Source: a virus. From it: 64,000 nt of DNA. The first letter of the stretch is position 1, and each line of letters opens with the position of its first letter. The notes beneath the pieces are model-generated. The model was not told where the DNA came from and made no database searches. It saw only the letters and a list, made by a program, of their open reading frames with translations. Shown in pieces: positions 2,625-19,894 of this stretch. A program made the translations under genes and the position numbers. The DNA lies in IMG/VR virus record IMGVR_UViG_3300046169_000103, positions 1 to 64,000 of that record. The stretch is one strand, 5' to 3'.

Positions 2625-2920
2625 TGGAATCACCAGACAAATCACCAGACATATATGATGTTTATAGTGGTACGCATGACATAGATATACCACTGCATTT
2701 CACGCAAGAGGTTAACATATCTGATTCAGTTGTAGGCACTGAGCTATCCATCGCTACGCCCAAAAGTGCCACTACGCACTCTATTGTTACTATTATCTCT
2801 CATCTCGCAGATCAACTAGAGGATAGATTTGGTAGTGGGCATCAACGCAACAGGGCTAAGAAGTTAGTCAAACTATTGGACATGATCAAGAAGTATGAGG
2901 GGGTGACAGATGAGTACTAA
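2621..2920 (+). CDS. hypothetical protein
   Basis: A 99-residue product. The N-terminal half is Ser/Thr/Asp-rich and probably disordered; the C-terminal half is basic and helical. It overlaps both neighbours (ATGATG at 2621; the next start at 2910), so translation is probably coupled. Function unknown. Confidence 0.5.
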   Translation: MMESPDKSPDIYDVYSGTHDIDIPLHFTQEVNISDSVVGTELSIATPKSATTHSIVTIISHLADQLEDRFGSGHQRNRAKKLVKLLDMIKKYEGVTDEY

Positions 2921-3740
2921 ATCTACTATTTCTCTATCCATTGACCCTGACAATATACAGGGGAGTCTAGCTTACGATAAAGGCTATTCTAATGAATATG
3001 TTGAGATGTCATCTGTTCGCATAGGTAGGCTACACAAGGATAGAAATAATGTAGGTGTATGGGATGCTGTGGCTGTTGAGCGATTTGCTATGTTCTGTGC
3101 CGCCTGTGCAGGTAAGAATAGTCATCAACAATCAGCCAAACTAGATCGGTTTAGTGAAGACCTATTCGATGTAGTGCATGAATGGGTGGTGGATTACAAG
3201 GCTGAGCTTATCGATATCAACATAGAAGATATCGGTATGGTAAGCATGTTTGGCTTAATGCGTTCCATTGCTGGATATGACTATATATCCGAGGCGATTA
3301 AGCGTAGTAAGCTAGGCAAGTGGAATCTATTAGCTCCGGGCTTCAAGGCTATGGCTATGGATGACACATTTCCAGGTAAGATGGGCGATAGACTAGATAA
3401 GGTAGCTAAGTACTCAGGGTATGGGTTAAAGACTGCCTCCCTATTTAATATGCATGTCTTTCATGAGCCGTGTGCCTGCTTAGATACATATATACTTAGA
3501 TGGCTTGCTGGTGACACCATGTTCCATGATGCCCCAATAGATATACTGCCCCCTTCATACAAGGGTGTGCCACGCCAATCGATCAGTAATTGGGATGTAT
3601 ACAGCCGATGGGAGGATGCCTTCCTATCAGAGTGCGTGCGTCGTGGGATGTCCCCCCTTGAACTTGATAAACAAATATGGATACACGCCCGTATCAAAAC
3701 AGAAAAACCTAATAAAACACAGGAATTATGCCTAACTTAA
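2910..3740 (+). CDS. HhH-GPD-type DNA glycosylase-like protein
   Basis: A 276-residue protein. Residues about 165-200 read YSGYGLKTAS, then CLDTYILRWL. This matches the helix-hairpin-helix plus conserved Asp of the HhH-GPD base-excision superfamily (typical pattern GxGxKTA...xxDxHIxR). Lys174 sits where OGG1-type bifunctional glycosylase/lyases have their catalytic Lys, and Asp192 where the essential Asp lies. The rest of the chain is not familiar. The inferred role is excision of a modified or mismatched base from DNA. Possible targets are damaged bases, or bases of the host that are modified differently from the phage's own. It overlaps the preceding gene by 11 bases and lies in the same operon as a cytosine methyltransferase and a DpdA-like enzyme. 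The alternative is a catalytically inactive HhH DNA-binding protein. Confidence 0.55.
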   Translation: MSTKSTISLSIDPDNIQGSLAYDKGYSNEYVEMSSVRIGRLHKDRNNVGVWDAVAVERFAMFCAACAGKNSHQQSAKLDRFSEDLFDVVHEWVVDYKAELIDINIEDIGMVSMFGLMRSIAGYDYISEAIKRSKLGKWNLLAPGFKAMAMDDTFPGKMGDRLDKVAKYSGYGLKTASLFNMHVFHEPCACLDTYILRWLAGDTMFHDAPIDILPPSYKGVPRQSISNWDVYSRWEDAFLSECVRRGMSPLELDKQIWIHARIKTEKPNKTQELCLT

Positions 3741-7688: not shown

Positions 7689-9095
7689 ATGATATCTAAA
7701 AGAAAAATCGTAGCCGCTGACCTATTCTGTGGGGCAGGTGGTACTAGTGCGGGTCTTCGTGATGCCTGTAAACAACTCGGATATGATACTGAGTTGGTTG
7801 CGGTCAATCATTGGCCCGTAGCAATAGCAACGCATGAGGCATCCCATAGGTTTGCTCACCACTTATGTGAGAACCTAGATAATGTCGATCCACGCAAAGT
7901 ATTCCCTAGTGGTAAGATTGATCTGCTTGTCGCTTCCCCAGAGTGTACACATTTTAGTGTCGCTCGTGGCGGTAAGCCTAAGTCCGATCAGAGCCGTGCA
8001 AGTGGTTGGCATGTACTAAGATGGGCAGAAGCATTACGACCTGATGTTGTAATTGTGGAAAATGTCAAGGAGTGGGCATCATGGTCGCCCCTAGATGCTG
8101 ATGGTAACATCGATCCAGAATGTGAGAAAGGTTCTACCTTTCGTGGATGGGTAAGTGCCCTTGAGGGCTTAGGCTATACAGTAGAGTGGAAGGTACTATG
8201 TTGTGCTGACTATGGTGATGTCACTAGTCGCCAACGCTTATTCGTTATGGCTAAGCGTGGTGGCAAGATTGTTTGGCCCGACCCATCCCATGCCAAGCAA
8301 CCCGATATGTTTGTTCAACAAAAGTGGCGGTCTGCTCGTGAGATAATTGACTGGGATAATCAAGGTAAGTCAATATTCAATCGATCGAAACCCCTGTCGC
8401 AGAATACACTCAAGCGTATCGTTGCAGGGATTGAGAAGTTCTGCCCAGAGGTAAATGAATTCTTGGTGAAGATAAATGGCAACGATGCTGAGTCTATCAA
8501 GCATTCACCCAAGTCTGTTGAAGAACCATTGCGTACCATTACTGCCGGAGGTAAGCACTTCGCATTAGTGAAGACTAACTTTCTTGTACAGCTTAGTGGC
8601 ACAGGGGAATCACAGATTAAATCTACGGCACAGGATGCTGACCAACCACTCACTACTATACATGGAGGCAAGAAACATGGGTTGGTTCAGCTTGAACCAT
8701 TAGTGGTACAGATCGATAACCATTCAAGCAAGGGTCACAACTGTCGAACGACTGATGAACCAATCAGTACAGTAGTTTCCAAAGGCAGGCACTGCCTCGT
8801 GCAACCCTTCCTATCAAAATACTACGGCACTGGCGAAAATGTCTACTCGGTAGACGAACCTGTCCACACCCTAACCACTAAGGCACGACACGCATTGATC
8901 GAGCCGACTATGGAGCATGGTGTCTTGGATATTAAGTTCAGGATGCTAACCAATGATGAATTAGCCAAAGCCCATGGTATGGGAGACTTTGACTTCCAAG
9001 GCACATCTGCGGAAGTCACTAAACAAATCGGTAATAGTGTACCGAGAAACATGGCGAAGGCACTCTGCCACGCCCAACTAACCAACCTAAATTAA
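7689..9095 (+). CDS. C5 cytosine-specific DNA methyltransferase
   Basis: A 468-residue enzyme that transfers a methyl group from S-adenosylmethionine to cytosine C5. Motif I, DLFCGAGGTS, is at residues 11-20. The catalytic loop is SPECTHFS with Cys86; the classical PC is here EC, a variant usual in this phage branch. The ENV motif is at residues 124-126, SRQRLF follows, and the C-terminal motif is IGNSVP. Between 270 and 430 there are four imperfect repeats of the type EPLxTIxxxxKHxLV, which hold the target-recognition part. The protein looks complete. It probably protects phage DNA from host restriction or marks it for another step. It follows small genes and is followed three bases later by the next start. 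No partner restriction nuclease is visible, so it appears to be an orphan methyltransferase. Confidence 0.9.
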   Translation: MISKRKIVAADLFCGAGGTSAGLRDACKQLGYDTELVAVNHWPVAIATHEASHRFAHHLCENLDNVDPRKVFPSGKIDLLVASPECTHFSVARGGKPKSDQSRASGWHVLRWAEALRPDVVIVENVKEWASWSPLDADGNIDPECEKGSTFRGWVSALEGLGYTVEWKVLCCADYGDVTSRQRLFVMAKRGGKIVWPDPSHAKQPDMFVQQKWRSAREIIDWDNQGKSIFNRSKPLSQNTLKRIVAGIEKFCPEVNEFLVKINGNDAESIKHSPKSVEEPLRTITAGGKHFALVKTNFLVQLSGTGESQIKSTAQDADQPLTTIHGGKKHGLVQLEPLVVQIDNHSSKGHNCRTTDEPISTVVSKGRHCLVQPFLSKYYGTGENVYSVDEPVHTLTTKARHALIEPTMEHGVLDIKFRMLTNDELAKAHGMGDFDFQGTSAEVTKQIGNSVPRNMAKALCHAQLTNLN

Positions 9096-9097
9096 TT

Positions 9098-9781
9098 ATG
9101 CCATTAGGAGTAACTAGCGAAGAAGACACCCAGGTAGATGAGAACTATCCTTACTTACCTGTAGATGCGGATATTGAAGAAATAATCAAAGAAGAGATAT
9201 CTCACCGCATACATGTATGTAAAGAAATCGAAACACTAAATGGTGTTAAGAAAATGATCGATGGAAGTATCCATGAAATTGTTAACGAACATCTGTACGA
9301 GCATGAAACTGCAGATTCCCTACGTAATGGATACTTGGTTGAGGGCGAAGATGGTGAGGAAGTACAAATCCAAATCAGAAAGGCATATCGCTCCAAGAAG
9401 TGTGCAATCAAGCAGAAGAAGGGACAAGAACCTAAGGAAACTAACAAGGATATCATGGCACTAGCTGAGATATTTGAATTAAAGAAAAACAAGGACGGGA
9501 CATTCCCCTTCCCTGCCGGAACATTCCTGTACAGGGACACAATAGTAGTAGACCCAACCAAGGTTCACCCTGATATGTTTGAGGACTTCGTTAAAGATGT
9601 CCGTGCCCTCGGGGAAAAGTACAAGCAGGGAAAACTGAACCCAGTGAGTGAGGATACGGAATTAGTAGCATCACCCACATTCCACTTGGGTAGGCTAAAA
9701 CTATCCAAAGCAATCAACCTGAGGCTACATCAGTTGTTTCAGAATATAGCAATAAAACTAACAAATGAGGAGGAGAAATAA
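9098..9781 (+). CDS. hypothetical protein
   Basis: A 227-residue acidic, mostly helical protein. It lies directly behind the methyltransferase and shares the A of its stop (TAATG at 9781) with the next gene. A Lys-rich segment sits around residues 95-115. Unknown function; position suggests a role in the same DNA-processing operon. Confidence 0.55.
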   Translation: MPLGVTSEEDTQVDENYPYLPVDADIEEIIKEEISHRIHVCKEIETLNGVKKMIDGSIHEIVNEHLYEHETADSLRNGYLVEGEDGEEVQIQIRKAYRSKKCAIKQKKGQEPKETNKDIMALAEIFELKKNKDGTFPFPAGTFLYRDTIVVDPTKVHPDMFEDFVKDVRALGEKYKQGKLNPVSEDTELVASPTFHLGRLKLSKAINLRLHQLFQNIAIKLTNEEEK

Positions 9782-10350
9782 TGAAATCTACACTAGTTAA
9801 AATAACTCCAATAGGACATGACCCTGAGTTCATGGTAGTGACTACTGAGTCATCTGCCCATGAATTTATAAAGAGTTATGCCAAGGACAACGGATATCGA
9901 ATCGAAGAGCGTGCGTGTGCAAATAGATTCCAGTGCATACTACAGGACTTAAAGCGGATTGAGGAGACTCTAGAAAAATATGCTCCTGTCGTACTCAAAC
10001 TACCTGCACTCGATGGTGGCGAACCATACAACGACCATCTATCGCAATGCTTCTGGAATATTGAAACAGCTTGTGATGAGGAGGCAAGCGAAGTTGAGCA
10101 TGAATGGCTTGCCTCTGGGGAGCTTCCCACATTTGGAGAGTACACCAAGAATATGACGCTCGAGCAAATGATGGAGATGTACTACGACATAGATATTTGG
10201 GAAGCTGGTGACAAGGCTGAACTACCTCGCAAGGTATGGACATATAAGGATGTCGCTCATGCAGTAGATAACGCTGACTGGCTCCCTGACTTTGAAAAGA
10301 AGTTCAAGGAGTACCTAATAGAAAGGGAGTACATAAGAGATGACAGCTGA
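9781..10350 (+). CDS. hypothetical protein
   Basis: A 189-residue acidic protein with GAGGAGGAG before the ATG. Trp and Glu are frequent in the C-terminal half. No motif recognised. Its end overlaps the GP88-like gene by 11 bases. Confidence 0.55.
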   Translation: MKSTLVKITPIGHDPEFMVVTTESSAHEFIKSYAKDNGYRIEERACANRFQCILQDLKRIEETLEKYAPVVLKLPALDGGEPYNDHLSQCFWNIETACDEEASEVEHEWLASGELPTFGEYTKNMTLEQMMEMYYDIDIWEAGDKAELPRKVWTYKDVAHAVDNADWLPDFEKKFKEYLIEREYIRDDS

Positions 10351-11170
10351 TGTAACAAATAATAAACTACTACGCTTTCAGTTTGGTAACGCTAAACTAA
10401 GTAAGCTAATCGCCCACGTATCTCTACCTGCAGGCTTTACTTGCCCGGGTGCTAAAGAGTGCCTGACTTTTGCGAACCGCAAGACTCGCAAGCTCAAGGA
10501 TGGTCCTGATACTCAGTTCCGTTGTTATGCAGCCGGAATGGAAGCTAGGTCTCCTGCCTACCACGATATTGTTTGGCATAACTTTGACCTAATAAATCAG
10601 GTCAAAAATGATGAGGATGCATTGTTTGAGTTGTATGCTGAGAGTTTAGCAATGATTCCAAACGCACTAATTGTTCGTAGTGGTGTAAGTGGTGACTTCT
10701 TCACCCAAGAGCAAGCCAATGCAGTAATGAGACTAGCGGATGCAAATCCAAACATACTGTTTTATGCCTACACTAAATCAGTTCCATTCTTCGAGGAACA
10801 CTTGGATTGCGAAGGGAGGGTTAGGGATAACTTCATAGTTACCTGCTCTATCGGTGGCAAACATGATGAGGATGTGTACCGCAGGGAATACAAGTATGCA
10901 GTTGTGGTTAAGGATAAGGCGCACGCTGACCGACTTGGTCTTGAGTGTGACCATGATGACACTCTTGCAATGCAACCTGGTGCTAGTTTCGCTCAACCCA
11001 TTCATGGTGGTCAACCTGCTGGCAGTGAGTGGGGTCAATACTCACGCAAGAATGGATACAACAAATCTAAAAAAGACCCACTAATTGATGTAACAACCTA
11101 TAACATATGGAAGGAAGTAATACATGGCAGTACTAGACATACGACAAAGCGAGCCGTCTCAACCATCTGA
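10340..11170 (+). CDS. GP88-family phage protein
   Basis: A 276-residue protein. The N-terminal text NNKLLRFQFGNAKLSK, then HVSLPAGFTCPGAKECL, with the conserved Cys pair, matches the phage gene-product-88 family. That family is widespread in phages and its biochemical role is not settled as far as I know. Further conserved-looking parts are the RSGVSGDFFT segment and a SIGGKHDED segment. It overlaps the AAA gene by 47 bases in another frame. Confidence 0.6.
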   Translation: MTADVTNNKLLRFQFGNAKLSKLIAHVSLPAGFTCPGAKECLTFANRKTRKLKDGPDTQFRCYAAGMEARSPAYHDIVWHNFDLINQVKNDEDALFELYAESLAMIPNALIVRSGVSGDFFTQEQANAVMRLADANPNILFYAYTKSVPFFEEHLDCEGRVRDNFIVTCSIGGKHDEDVYRREYKYAVVVKDKAHADRLGLECDHDDTLAMQPGASFAQPIHGGQPAGSEWGQYSRKNGYNKSKKDPLIDVTTYNIWKEVIHGSTRHTTKRAVSTI

Positions 11171-11795
11171 GTTGATCGGTTCACAAATACAAAAGACAGC
11201 ATCTGCTTTATGGCAGAGCGCAGAGGACACACTATCGGGTGACGAAGAGTATCCGTTAGCTATTGTTCTTACAGGTGCGCCCGGTATCGGTAAGACCACG
11301 CTGGCTAATATGCTTGCGTTGAAGCTAACAGGTAGCAACTTCGCAGTTACTACCGAGAATGGTAAGGAGGTGGGTGTCGATCGGGTCAGGGATTTCATGG
11401 ACAACATGAACAACTCCACCCTGTTTTCTGTTACTGGTCATCAATGTTGGATTATCAACGAGGGTGATAACATAACAGAGGCTGGACAAGTTGCGTTCCT
11501 ATCATTACTCGACTCATGCCCGTCCAACTACCACATCATTCTCACATCCAACGAAGACTTAGATAATTGGAGTGAACGCTTTCAGACTAGGTTTGAAGTG
11601 TATAACATCCCATCCCCCGATGACGATGAAATCGCAAAGGGTCTAGAGGATAGACTGCGTCCCGAGAATATGACCCCTCAACTAGAGCAACTCTGGCCGA
11701 AAGTTGCACAGACTGCATCCGAGGGATGTGGTGGCAATGTCCGTCAGGCAATCATGGAGATACGAGCATGGAAGCGGAAGAACAGGATATCATAG
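11124..11795 (+). CDS. clamp-loader-like AAA ATPase
   Basis: A 223-residue P-loop ATPase. The Walker A GAPGIGKTT is at residues 51-59. The Walker B region reads CWIINEGDN, with the usual first Asp replaced by Asn112 but the catalytic Glu113 kept. The sensor-1 Asn is in LTSNED (residue 143) and an arginine-finger-like QTRF is at 154-157. The layout is that of replication factor C / DnaX small-subunit AAA modules. The predicted role is loading a sliding clamp or remodelling a protein on DNA. The lid domain is short, so it may work with host subunits. No clamp or polymerase gene is visible in this window. Confidence 0.65.
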   Translation: MAVLDIRQSEPSQPSELIGSQIQKTASALWQSAEDTLSGDEEYPLAIVLTGAPGIGKTTLANMLALKLTGSNFAVTTENGKEVGVDRVRDFMDNMNNSTLFSVTGHQCWIINEGDNITEAGQVAFLSLLDSCPSNYHIILTSNEDLDNWSERFQTRFEVYNIPSPDDDEIAKGLEDRLRPENMTPQLEQLWPKVAQTASEGCGGNVRQAIMEIRAWKRKNRIS

Positions 11796-12310
11796 AGGTA
11801 GATAAATCCATAATAGAAGGAAAAGGTTACACCTTTGATAAAAGTGTGCCAGGACATGGTGGGTACAAAGCCCAAGGGAAGCACCTGAAAAACTTTTACT
11901 CTGGAGAGTCAATATCAAAACCTAAGCCAACAGGTAAGGTGTATGAGAATGACGGGAAATACTACCTCGTCACAGGCTACAATGAGAATGAAGTGAAGGG
12001 GCAAGAAGTAGTTCCTTTGGAGCCTGGTATGCCTAGCCTTCACTATGGTGAATGGGCAGCCATTCAGACTTGGGTAGAAGGTTATGGCGAAATCAGTGAC
12101 GAGTTGGCTGAGTTAGCCATGAAGGTAGAGCAGTATTTCAAACAAGAAATAGGTAGGGGAAATGGGTACATAGGCGTGAGGTTTGAGTCACGCAAGCGGA
12201 TATATGTAACCACCCCAAGAAATGTAAAATTTGTAGCCAAGAAGCATGGGAATCAAATACAGGATGCATTCGCATGGGCTAACCCCGCACAGGAGGAAAT
12301 GAAATTATGA
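11768..12310 (+). CDS. hypothetical protein
   Basis: A 180-residue product from the ATG at 11768; a GTG or TTG start further up would overlap the AAA gene more. A Gly/Lys/Tyr-rich N-terminal region is followed by a compact domain with LHYGEWAAIQTWVEGYG. Function unknown. Its stop overlaps the next ATG. Confidence 0.5.
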   Translation: MEAEEQDIIEVDKSIIEGKGYTFDKSVPGHGGYKAQGKHLKNFYSGESISKPKPTGKVYENDGKYYLVTGYNENEVKGQEVVPLEPGMPSLHYGEWAAIQTWVEGYGEISDELAELAMKVEQYFKQEIGRGNGYIGVRFESRKRIYVTTPRNVKFVAKKHGNQIQDAFAWANPAQEEMKL

Positions 12311-13149
12311 AAATAATACAGACAAAAATAACGCCCTCGCAAGCAAGCGAGTTGTTAGGCAACAATCCAAACAACAGACTAGTGTCTCCTACTACCGTAA
12401 GGGATTATGTAAGAGACATGAAGGATCGGAAGTGGATGCCTAATGGAGAGACAATAAAGATATACAACGATACCAAGAATCGTAAGTTACCCATAACCAA
12501 GCATAGGTTAATTGATGGACAGCACAGGCTAACTGCTTGCGTAAAATCAAACATACCCCTTGATGCGGTTATTGCGGTTGTTGATAGCCCTGATGTCTTC
12601 AAGACTATTGATACAGGCAAGAAACGCAGCACAAAGGACTGCCTAGATATACTTGGCTTCACGAACACTGCCTGTCTGGCTGCTTCTTTAGCTTTGATCA
12701 AAAAAGTAGACACAACAGGGATATCTGCAGTTACTAAATCACCAGGAGGTGGATCAACATCTAAGGTTAGAAATCACGAGATTGAGCAACTTGCTGATGA
12801 ATATCCAACAATGCCGGAGTCTGTAGCATACGCAAACAGAGCGCGGACGCTACTAAAGACAAGACCTGCAACTATGTCAGTAATTCACTACAAGTTGTCT
12901 CAGGTCGATCAAGACCTAGCCGAGGAATTCTTAACTGCATTCCATGGTGGGGAAGGATTGAGCGGAACATCTCCAGTGCTTCATGCTAGAAATAGAATAA
13001 TTAAGCGACTTATGTCTGATAAGATTCTTACTCCATTCTATCTAATGAAGGTGGTGTTCACTGCTTGGAATCACTGGATTAGTGGCAATGAGATAACCAA
13101 GTTGCAGATTACCAATACTGAAAGCCTACCTAAACTAAAACACTCATAA
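12307..13149 (+). CDS. DGQHR/ParB-like domain protein
   Basis: A 280-residue protein. Residues 68-75, LIDGQHRL, are the hallmark of the DGQHR group of ParB/sulfiredoxin-like domains, which includes DndB and many phage ParB-like proteins. The N-terminal part (VRDYVRDMKDRKWMPNG) is typical of the fold; the C-terminal half is helical. ParB/Srx domains bind or cleave nucleotides or nucleic acids. The stop TAATG overlaps the start of the DpdA-like gene, so the two are almost certainly translated together. In bacterial 7-deazaguanine clusters the DpdA partner, DpdB, is from memory a related ParB/DndB-type protein. A partner role here is therefore an attractive inference, not shown by the sequence. 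Confidence 0.6.
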   Translation: MKIIQTKITPSQASELLGNNPNNRLVSPTTVRDYVRDMKDRKWMPNGETIKIYNDTKNRKLPITKHRLIDGQHRLTACVKSNIPLDAVIAVVDSPDVFKTIDTGKKRSTKDCLDILGFTNTACLAASLALIKKVDTTGISAVTKSPGGGSTSKVRNHEIEQLADEYPTMPESVAYANRARTLLKTRPATMSVIHYKLSQVDQDLAEEFLTAFHGGEGLSGTSPVLHARNRIIKRLMSDKILTPFYLMKVVFTAWNHWISGNEITKLQITNTESLPKLKHS

Positions 13150-14027
13150 TGAAAGAATACTATACAGGAATTGATGACCCTAAGCGTGCCATACTACTTA
13201 ATGAGCATAGAAATATTGAGTTAGGCTTCATGCTCTCTACTAATCGCATAAAGAGAAGGAAGAAAGAGATACTCAATAAGGGTAAGTGGATGCTCGACTC
13301 AGGGGCATTCACGCAGATTAAGGACAATGGTAAGTTCATCATTCCTGTTGAGAAGTATGTGGAAATCATCAAGCGACACGAGGATGAGAACCTAGTGTGT
13401 GCTGTCACTCAGGACTATATGTGTGAACCAGATATGTTAGAAATAACAGGCAAGACAGTCCGTGAGCATATCAGGATGACCGTCCAGAGATACTTCCGTA
13501 TTCTTAAGCTTATGAGAAAGCGTGGATGTAGCACAATGCTACTCCCTGTATTACAGGGCATGGAGGCACAGGACTACATCGAATGCTTGGACTTGTACGA
13601 GGAGGGGTGGCGAAAGCTGGAGAATAGGTATGGGTTTCTGTACAGATTCGGGGGTGAGCAATTCACCCGCCCTACTCGTATCGGTTTTGGATCTATGTGC
13701 AAACGCAATGGCAACCCTGGTCCTGTCGAATCAATACTTGATCAGATGGAGCATAGGCTAGGGAATTTTAAAATCCATCTATTCGGTTTTAAAACAACAG
13801 GCTTGAATATTAAGTGGGAGATTGCTTCACGCATCCACTCTGCCGACTCCTTTGCATATAGCATGAGAGACAGGAAATACAATGCACATGAAGCACCGGA
13901 AATTAATGTGAGAACTAATGACTCACGAGCCGAGCTTGCTATCGAACATGGTAGAAAGATGGCAAGACTCGTAGAGAAAACACAAACAACACTAAACCTA
14001 AACCTAGATTATGGAGTAACAATATGA
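13149..14027 (+). CDS. dpdA: DpdA-like DNA 7-deazaguanine transglycosylase
   Basis: A 292-residue protein related to queuine tRNA-ribosyltransferase (TGT) but of the phage DNA-modifying DpdA type. Visible family landmarks are MLDSGAFT at 48-55 (TGT DSGGF element), QDYMCEP at 88-94, PVLQG at 133-137, IGFGSMCKRN at 178-187, HLFGFKTTGL at 210-219 and SADSFAYS at 231-238. DpdA enzymes replace guanine in DNA with a 7-deazaguanine base such as preQ0, which makes DNA resistant to many restriction enzymes. None of the preQ0 genes (folE, queD, queE, queC) is in this window, so substrate must come from the host or from genes outside it. The coupled DGQHR gene upstream and overlapping gene downstream form a compact operon. 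A tRNA-acting TGT is much less likely, because the sequence follows the DpdA pattern and lacks the TGT zinc-site cysteines. Confidence 0.75.
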   Translation: MKEYYTGIDDPKRAILLNEHRNIELGFMLSTNRIKRRKKEILNKGKWMLDSGAFTQIKDNGKFIIPVEKYVEIIKRHEDENLVCAVTQDYMCEPDMLEITGKTVREHIRMTVQRYFRILKLMRKRGCSTMLLPVLQGMEAQDYIECLDLYEEGWRKLENRYGFLYRFGGEQFTRPTRIGFGSMCKRNGNPGPVESILDQMEHRLGNFKIHLFGFKTTGLNIKWEIASRIHSADSFAYSMRDRKYNAHEAPEINVRTNDSRAELAIEHGRKMARLVEKTQTTLNLNLDYGVTI

Positions 14028-14371
14028 GCGGAGAAGGTCATTATGCGTCCTTTAGGAGGACAGACGAAACACAGGAGGATAACGAAGATTTATGTAAAAT
14101 GTTCGAAAGACTCATCCTGACATCACCAGTAACTAAACACATGAAGTTCTACCCTGATTCTGTTGGGCAAGTTACGCTTTACGAAAAAGACGGAAGCGAT
14201 ACGCCTCAATGGCTAAAAGAACGCTTAGAAGATGGAGAATTTTGGTTTTACATTTCGACTTATGAATCGTGGTACGAAGACGCAGATATATACGAATCAG
14301 AGGACCGAGAGGATAGCTTTGTATCAATTGCTAAAAAATTCGCAGTAAATAACAACCTAAATATGGAGTAA
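14024..14371 (+). CDS. acidic hypothetical protein
   Basis: A 115-residue acidic, aromatic-rich product (FWFYISTYESWYEDAD). It overlaps the DpdA-like gene by four bases (ATGA). No family recognised; its coupling makes it a candidate accessory factor of the modification enzyme. Confidence 0.5.
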   Translation: MSGEGHYASFRRTDETQEDNEDLCKMFERLILTSPVTKHMKFYPDSVGQVTLYEKDGSDTPQWLKERLEDGEFWFYISTYESWYEDADIYESEDREDSFVSIAKKFAVNNNLNME

Positions 14372-18838: not shown

Positions 18839-19894
18839 ATGAAGTTACTTAAAACCAAAACTGGTTACTCTGTGAGGTATAAGACGGAGTTTGGTATGAG
18901 AACTACCAGACTCTCGTCTACCTCAGAGAAGGATGCTCGTAAGGAAGTAAGGGATGCTAAGATTGCAGAGCTTGAAGCTGCAGCCAATGCCGGAGCATTA
19001 ACTATGGATGTCATCGCAAAGATGATGGCTGGACGAGTCATGACTTGTCAGGACGCTCTAGATGAGTGGAATGAGTGGCGTGAGTCCGAGGGCAAGTCTG
19101 CTAACACTATCAATAGTCAGACCGACTTCATTCATTTATTCTGCAAGGCACAGCACGGCATGGATAAACCTGTTAACACTATCACCCACAAGATGATATC
19201 GAAGTGGGTAAATAATCCAAAATCCAAGGTAGGTGTCTCCACTAGGAACGCATGGTTGTCCGCAATCTCCGCATTCCTATCATTCTGCTCAACTAGGCAA
19301 TACATCCCAAAGAACCCCGCTAGTATAGTATCGGTCAATATGGGCAAGCTATCCCATGAGCAAAAAGAGAAGAAAAGAGTAGTTCCCTTCACAGAGGAGG
19401 AGTACAAGAAGTTGTACAACAATGCCATTGACTGCTTTAAGAATGATGCAGTAGGTGAATTCTGGGTGGTTGCCTCTACCCTATCCTATTGGCTTGGATT
19501 GAGGCTTGGTGATATCATTAACCTTGAGTGGGATTCATTAGGTAAAACCCACATCACTGTTTGGACAGAAAAGAAAGATGCTAGGGTAAAACTACCAATC
19601 AATCATAAACTAACAGGGGGCAAGGCAATCAGTAAAGCCCTTGCTATGATTTCTTATGATGATGGCAAGTATGTGTTCTCGAAAGAGTATAGAGATAAGA
19701 TAAATGACCCTAAAAAACGCCACTACTTTAGTCAGCAGTTCAGGGAGTTAATGAATCGCCTAGACATAGAGGGCAAATCCTTTCATTGCTTCCGTCATGC
19801 TTTTGCTACTAGGCACAAGAATATGCCCCTAGAGGATGTAGCCAAGATGCTTGGTCATAAAAGCACCAAGACAACCAAGGGATATACCCACTAA
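18839..19894 (+). CDS. int: tyrosine recombinase / phage integrase
   Basis: A 351-residue site-specific recombinase. It has an N-terminal arm-binding-like part, a core-binding domain (about 70-165) and a catalytic domain (about 180-351). The catalytic set is complete: Arg222 in GLRLGD, Lys at 245-246 in TEKKDA, His316 and Arg319 in HCFRHAF, His340 in MLGHKS, and the nucleophile Tyr349 three residues from the end. It catalyses integration of the phage into the host chromosome, the main evidence that this element is temperate. It is the last gene of the rightward block and its stop overlaps the stop of the convergent gene. I cannot identify the attachment site; no tRNA gene or obvious core repeat is visible beside it. 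Confidence 0.9.
   Translation: MKLLKTKTGYSVRYKTEFGMRTTRLSSTSEKDARKEVRDAKIAELEAAANAGALTMDVIAKMMAGRVMTCQDALDEWNEWRESEGKSANTINSQTDFIHLFCKAQHGMDKPVNTITHKMISKWVNNPKSKVGVSTRNAWLSAISAFLSFCSTRQYIPKNPASIVSVNMGKLSHEQKEKKRVVPFTEEEYKKLYNNAIDCFKNDAVGEFWVVASTLSYWLGLRLGDIINLEWDSLGKTHITVWTEKKDARVKLPINHKLTGGKAISKALAMISYDDGKYVFSKEYRDKINDPKKRHYFSQQFRELMNRLDIEGKSFHCFRHAFATRHKNMPLEDVAKMLGHKSTKTTKGYTH

What the first reader, a model, noticed from the sequence alone, without database searches (positions are those of the whole stretch)
12307..14371. Coupled DGQHR protein and DpdA-like enzyme: a candidate DNA guanine-modification unit without preQ0 genes in sight
The 292-residue protein carries the landmarks of phage DpdA DNA transglycosylases. 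It is translationally coupled to a DGQHR/ParB-like gene on one side and an acidic small gene on the other. Bacterial Dpd systems pair DpdA with a ParB/DndB-like protein (from memory), so this could be a minimal phage version. With no folE, queD, queE or queC in 64 kb the phage may use host preQ0 or a salvaged base, which would be unusual.
Basis: partly seen in the sequence, partly recalled or inferred. Interest (0 to 1): 0.7.

Follow-up and report, generated by a model that had tools for sequence, protein, structure and literature searches.

The report
Solitary phage DpdA DNA-base exchanger
The virus carries an intact-looking enzyme of a known kind that swaps guanine in DNA for a modified base, probably supplied by its bacterial host; such solitary enzymes are common in phages, and the neighbouring ParB-like gene appears to be a chance neighbour rather than a partner.

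Summary
The 292-aa protein is a genuine member of the phage DpdA family (Pfam PF23859, E 2.5e-27). Its predicted fold matches tRNA-guanine transglycosylase and the solved DNA preQ0 insertase DpdA (Z about 18.5), and all expected active-site residues are invariant in 54 homologues. The gene is under strong purifying selection.

(1) The DGQHR-DpdA 'unit' is not conserved. A sister phage (85% identical DpdA) has other genes on both sides, and its DGQHR gene lies about 20 kb away. No other locus of 81 viral DpdA, 80 viral DGQHR or 35 bacterial-genome DpdA loci holds both. The acidic gene has no homologue in related genomes. (2) DpdA without preQ0 genes is not unusual: it is the largest known class of DpdA phages (PMC6884629).

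No FolE, QueD, QueE, QueC or YhhQ was found in the 65.9-kb record. Best reading: a solitary DpdA that inserts host-made preQ0 (or a relative) into phage DNA. DNA modification itself is unproven; the tested DpdA-only mycobacteriophage, Orion, had none. One new support: in 8 scattered DpdA-only loci the preQ0 transporter YhhQ sits right beside dpdA.

The parts
13149..14027 (+). dpdA-like gene, 292 aa, long form of the solitary phage DpdA family
   Evidence: Pfam PF23859 E 2.5e-27; PHROG 1279; TGT/DpdA fold, Z 18.5 to 7ui4; 85% identical orthologue, dN/dS 0.067
13296..13298 (+). codon of Asp50 in DSGAF, counterpart by motif of the TGT general acid/base Asp (Z. mobilis D102)
   Evidence: Invariant in 54 of 54 homologues; same DSGAF aligned in CAjan DpdA
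13410..13415 (+). codons of Gln88-Asp89 (QDYMCEP motif), likely base-recognition Asp (Z. mobilis D156 position)
   Evidence: Invariant in 54 of 54; assignment by motif order, inference
13554..13559 (+). codons of Gln136-Gly137 (LQG), likely base recognition (Z. mobilis Q203-G204)
   Evidence: Invariant in 54 of 54; assignment by motif order, inference
13845..13847 (+). codon of Asp233 (SADSFAY), likely nucleophile (Z. mobilis D280 position)
   Evidence: Invariant in 54 of 54; aligns with CDSSSW of CAjan DpdA
12307..13149 (+). DGQHR gene, 280 aa, ParB/Srx-like N-terminal domain plus helical C-terminal part; neighbour, not shown to be a partner
   Evidence: PHROG 5931 E 1.5e-47; fold matches ParB, Noc, KorB, PadC, Srx over residues 1-108, Z up to 7.6; linkage to dpdA not conserved
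14024..14371 (+). small acidic gene, 115 aa; neighbour specific to this phage
   Evidence: No family hit above cut-off; no homologue in 8 related viral records
11124..11795 (+). clamp-loader-like AAA ATPase, conserved in the wider neighbourhood of dpdA in this lineage
   Evidence: PHROG 5846; near DpdA in L002, L011/L012, L014, L019/L040, L020
14516..17020 (+). SNF2-type helicase, conserved in the wider neighbourhood of dpdA in this lineage
   Evidence: Pfam SNF2-rel_dom E 2e-15; near DpdA in L002, L011/L012, L013, L014, L019/L040, L020, L023, L084

Best explanation
The gene at 13149-14027 is a solitary ('DpdA-only') phage DNA-guanine transglycosylase. It is a TIM-barrel enzyme of the TGT superfamily. 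Like TGT, it would attack C1' of a deoxyguanosine with Asp233, expel guanine, and accept a 7-deazaguanine base deprotonated by Asp50, leaving a modified base in the phage DNA that hinders host restriction enzymes. As the virus record has no preQ0 synthesis genes and no preQ0 transporter, the base would have to be preQ0 (or a relative) made or taken up by the host. The DGQHR gene is an independent ParB/Srx-fold gene that lies beside dpdA by gene shuffling. Shown: family, fold, residue conservation, purifying selection, missing synthesis genes, lack of conserved linkage. Inferred: catalysis, DNA as substrate, preQ0 as the base, protection from restriction.
For: PF23859 DpdA and PHROG 1279 matches. 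AlphaFold model pLDDT 86, pTM 0.86. Foldseek top hits are TGT, and VIA-align Z is 18.6 to archaeosine TGT 1iq8 and 18.5 to DNA preQ0 insertase DpdA 7ui4. D50, Q88, D89, Q136, H210 and D233 are invariant in 54 homologues. Profile alignment to CAjan DpdA, which is essential for dPreQ0 in CAjan DNA (PMC6884629), E 1.6e-6 with DSGAF, HxFG and DS motifs matched. dN/dS 0.067; 85% identity to the sister phage, the highest of 12 genes compared. No QueC, YhhQ, QueD, radical SAM or FolE in the record. YhhQ lies beside dpdA in 8 loci of the family, scattered on the tree, which fits a salvaged 7-deazaguanine as substrate.
Against: No DNA chemistry is available. Orion, a mycobacteriophage that encodes only DpdA, had no detectable 7-deazaguanine, though its host also lacks preQ0 genes (PMC6884629). 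Experimentally proven CAjan DpdA does not match PF23859, so the two branches are distant. The host is unknown, and QueC presence in bacteria carrying related dpdA genes (19 of 32 over cut-off) is no higher than in the control set (9 of 14). No YhhQ in this lineage.
Confidence: 0.6

Rival explanations
1. The DpdA-like protein keeps the fold but does not modify phage DNA in practice: either it has diverged to another substrate such as tRNA, or it is idle in hosts without preQ0.
For: Orion, a DpdA-only mycobacteriophage, had no modification by mass spectrometry, and the authors note that solitary DpdAs may have functionally diverged (PMC6884629). CAjan-type DpdA is very distant.
Against: Strong purifying selection and invariant catalytic residues. 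Orion's host makes no preQ0, so that test cannot separate inactivity from lack of substrate. Solitary DpdA of Salmonella phage 7-11 goes with trace dADG, but that protein is not of this Pfam branch. Recurrent YhhQ beside dpdA in other members.
Confidence: 0.25
2. DGQHR protein and DpdA form a minimal Dpd-like modification unit, with the DGQHR protein guiding or regulating base insertion.
For: Adjacent, same strand, stop/start overlap TAATG. ParB/Srx-like fold. A DGQHR homologue is present somewhere in 4 of 9 records of the long-form lineage, the window's own included.
Against: Linkage in 0 of 81 other viral DpdA loci, 0 of 80 DGQHR loci and 0 of 35 bacterial-genome DpdA loci. In the sister phage other genes are coupled to dpdA at the same kind of junctions, and DGQHR is about 20 kb away beside DnaB-like and SSB-like genes. 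In isolate phages the DGQHR gene sits in early or recombination regions. No PADLOC or NCBIfam match.
Confidence: 0.06
3. DpdA inserts a base that is then altered by another product of the operon, such as the GP88-family protein, giving a different final base.
For: GP88 (10340-11170) is nearly as conserved as DpdA between the two sister phages, 83% against 85%, and has a Cys-containing motif (sequence).
Against: GP88 relatives occur in Synechococcus and Streptomyces phages and near DpdA in only 3 of 81 other viral loci, two of them with identical scores and so probably near-copies. No radical SAM family match in the genome.
Confidence: 0.05

Closest known systems
Solitary DpdA of Mycobacterium phages (PF23859; Pops, TClif/Shandong1)
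   Same: Same Pfam family (E 2.5e-27), 29-32% identity, same invariant motifs; DpdA-only mycobacteriophages such as Orion carry no preQ0 genes (PMC6884629)
   Different: Window protein belongs to a long-form group (insert near residues 150-175 and C-terminal extension), lies in a replication-type operon and is in an uncultured virus with an unknown host
CAjan/9g-type phage DpdA with full preQ0 cluster
   Same: TGT-like catalytic motifs align; same expected reaction
   Different: No PF23859 match for CAjan DpdA; CAjan carries folE, queD, queE, queC and a preQ0 transporter, the window none
Bacterial Dpd restriction-modification system (DpdA 7ui4, DpdB and others)
   Same: DpdA fold, Z 18.5
   Different: No Dpd match in PADLOC for the DpdA or DGQHR proteins; no multigene dpd cluster seen
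Sinorhizobium phage phiLM21 DpdA (gp25) with YhhQ-like gp26
   Same: 33% identical DpdA, best-scoring named isolate
   Different: Has a preQ0-transporter homologue directly downstream; window lacks one

Membership tests
Phage DpdA family (PF23859 / PHROG 1279) | Match to the family profile over the curated cut-off | tested here: met
   96 bits against a cut-off of 27, residues 27-271; PHROG 1279 130 bits
Phage DpdA family (PF23859 / PHROG 1279) | TGT-superfamily fold with the two catalytic Asp and base-binding residues | tested here: met
   (fold); D50, D89, Q136 and D233 invariant in 54 rows; roles assigned by motif order to TGT from established knowledge
Phage DpdA family (PF23859 / PHROG 1279) | Insertion of 7-deazaguanine into DNA | not testable with these tools
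   Needs LC-MS/MS of DNA; reported for CAjan and 9g type DpdA, not found for Orion (PMC6884629)
Phage 7-deazaguanine pathway with own preQ0 synthesis | FolE, QueD, QueE, QueC in the genome | tested here: not met
   No PF01227, PF01242, PF04055 or PF06508 match in the 65.9-kb record; record may lack a piece
Bacterial Dpd system | DpdA and DpdB of the bacterial type | tested here: inconclusive
   No Dpd match for P0001 or P0002 in PADLOC at E up to 1 and no NCBIfam match; presence of DpdA/DpdB models in these libraries was not checked
DndB/DpdB (DGQHR) family | Full-length match beyond the DGQHR motif | tested here: inconclusive
   Only PHROG 5931 (unknown function) matches well; N-terminal 108 residues resemble ParB/Srx; no direct DndB or DpdB comparison was run
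Minimal DGQHR-DpdA unit | Linkage conserved in relatives | tested here: not met
   0 of 81 viral DpdA, 0 of 80 DGQHR, 0 of 35 bacterial loci; sister phage unlinked

The most novel reading that the evidence does not exclude
The long-form DpdA lineage inserts a host-derived 7-deazaguanine that is further changed or targeted by phage partners (DGQHR or GP88), i.e. a minimal modification system without its own base synthesis and with a new final base.
Probability: 0.06. Interest if true: 0.6.

Novelty: new member of a known kind. Interest (0 to 1): 0.27.

Why it matters
Solitary DpdAs are the most common form among phages surveyed, yet it is largely unknown whether they modify DNA. This phage and its sister give a clean long-form pair under strong selection. 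The recurrent dpdA-yhhQ neighbours found here point to salvage of host or environmental preQ0 and name loci (phiLM21, Microvirga, Rhodobacteraceae) where that can be tested directly.

Tried and rejected
A DGQHR-DpdA unit: rejected by the linkage counts. DGQHR close relatives by single-sequence scan of viral contigs: none found, so an alignment was used. Host preQ0 ability as a discriminator: QueC in 19 of 32 bacterial carriers over cut-off against 9 of 14 controls, uninformative. Host from isolate relatives: terminase and helicase have no close cultured relatives. preQ1 riboswitch or other RNA families in the window: none at gathering threshold. Direct profile alignment of DpdA to E. coli TGT by sequence: no useful signal, so fold comparison was used. 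PDB by sequence: nothing meaningful. The DpdA tree has long branches and many weak forks and is only a rough guide.

Full report
Observation. The three + strand ORFs exist exactly as listed: 12307-13149, 13149-14027 and 14024-14371. The junctions are ATGA, TAATG and ATGA, and dpdA has no clear Shine-Dalgarno sequence of its own. Overlaps of one base to a few dozen occur along most of this operon (starts at 9781, 10340, 11124, 11726, 17017, 17418), so coupling is the local norm. The window is 64,000 of a 65,923-base virus record. It has a tyrosine integrase at 18839-19894, terminase and tail-fibre genes, and no tRNA.

Identity of the 292-aa protein. It matches Pfam DpdA PF23859 at E 2.5e-27 and PHROG 1279 (queuine tRNA-ribosyltransferase) at E 1.2e-37. 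In isolate phages its best matches are Sinorhizobium phage phiLM21, Mycobacterium phages, Rhizobium and Microcystis phages, at 29-34% identity; 398 records match in all. An AlphaFold2 model on 54 homologues has pLDDT 86 and pTM 0.86. Its Foldseek top hits are tRNA-guanine transglycosylases, and VIA-align gives Z 18.6 to archaeosine TGT and Z 18.5 to the DNA preQ0 insertase DpdA, 7ui4. Asp50 (DSGAF), Gln88-Asp89, Gln136-Gly137, Gly179, Gly181, His210 and Asp233 are invariant in all 54. The roles given to them rest on motif order compared with TGT, from established knowledge. CAjan DpdA, required for dPreQ0 in that phage (PMC6884629), aligns by profile with the DSGAF, HxFG and DS motifs in register, but it is too distant to match PF23859.

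Selection and context. A sister virus (L002, 63.8 kb) encodes an 85% identical DpdA. Of 12 gene pairs compared, DpdA is the most conserved (85%; GP88 83%, integrase 79%, others 29-68%), with dN/dS 0.067. In both viruses dpdA lies between the clamp-loader-like AAA gene and the SNF2-like helicase. The AAA and helicase genes are also found, in varying order, near dpdA in the other long-form (about 290-aa) members. The genes directly beside dpdA differ: in L002 an 85-aa gene upstream and a 127-aa gene downstream take the places of the DGQHR and acidic genes, joined by the same kind of overlaps.

Is there a DGQHR-DpdA unit? The evidence says no. The DGQHR homologue of the sister phage lies about 20 kb from its dpdA, beside DnaB-like and SSB-like genes (function read from sequence, inference). 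In two other long-form records it lies tens of kilobases away. A model of the DGQHR family found no member in 81 other viral DpdA loci (up to 10 kb each side) or in 35 DpdA loci of bacterial genomes (up to 5 kb each side), and a DpdA model found none in 80 viral DGQHR loci (up to 6 kb each side). In isolate phages the DGQHR gene sits in early or recombination regions. Its model shows a ParB/Srx-like N-terminal domain (residues 1-108; Z up to 7.6 to PadC, ParB, Noc, KorB, Srx) and a helical remainder. The acidic gene has no homologue in eight related records.

preQ0 genes. No QueC, QueD, radical SAM (QueE), FolE or YhhQ match was found in the record or in its long-form relatives, while the control genomes rang. 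This is not unusual. In the 2019 survey 76 phages encoded DpdA alone, the largest class, and the authors already proposed host preQ0 or uptake (PMC6884629). They found no 7-deazaguanine in Orion, whose host makes none, and a trace of dADG in Salmonella phage 7-11.

A supporting lead. A YhhQ/Vut_1-type preQ0 transporter gene lies on the same strand directly beside dpdA (from overlapping to 374 bases apart) in eight loci: L003, L021, L033, L079, phiLM21 gp26, and bacterial loci L126, L128 and L133. They are scattered on a rough DpdA tree that needs eight changes for the label. No YhhQ hit near a PF23859-type dpdA lies elsewhere, and none occurs in the 80 DGQHR loci. The survey reported YhhQ in some phages without correlation to a group. 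Repeated pairing fits the idea that solitary DpdAs use a salvaged 7-deazaguanine. The window's lineage lacks this gene.

Verdict. New member of a known kind: a solitary phage DpdA, very likely an active TGT-like enzyme by conservation, with DNA modification by host preQ0 the likeliest but unproven function. The proposed coupling and the claim of unusualness do not stand.

Noticed in passing
L003, L021, L033, L079, L004, L126, L128, L133: A YhhQ/Vut_1 preQ0-transporter-like gene lies directly beside a DpdA-only gene in eight loci scattered over the DpdA tree.
   Followed up: partly
window 10340-11170: GP88-family protein (PF17338) with a C-x5-C...CYA motif, 83% conserved with the sister phage, second only to DpdA among genes compared; function unknown.
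   Followed up: partly
window 2910-3740: 276-aa protein with a helix-hairpin-helix glycosylase-like motif; weak match to 8-oxoguanine glycosylase (E 0.013), no Pfam hit.
   Followed up: partly
L002 10879-11262: 127-aa protein coupled to dpdA in the sister phage that resembles uracil-DNA glycosylases by eye; homologues near DpdA in L020 and L084, but no meaningful PDB or Pfam match.
   Followed up: partly
window 7689-9095: C5-cytosine DNA methyltransferase upstream in the same operon, so the phage may carry two kinds of DNA modification.
   Followed up: no
window around 20100: Strand and GC-skew switch between a rightward early arm and a leftward structural arm, next to the integrase gene.
   Followed up: no
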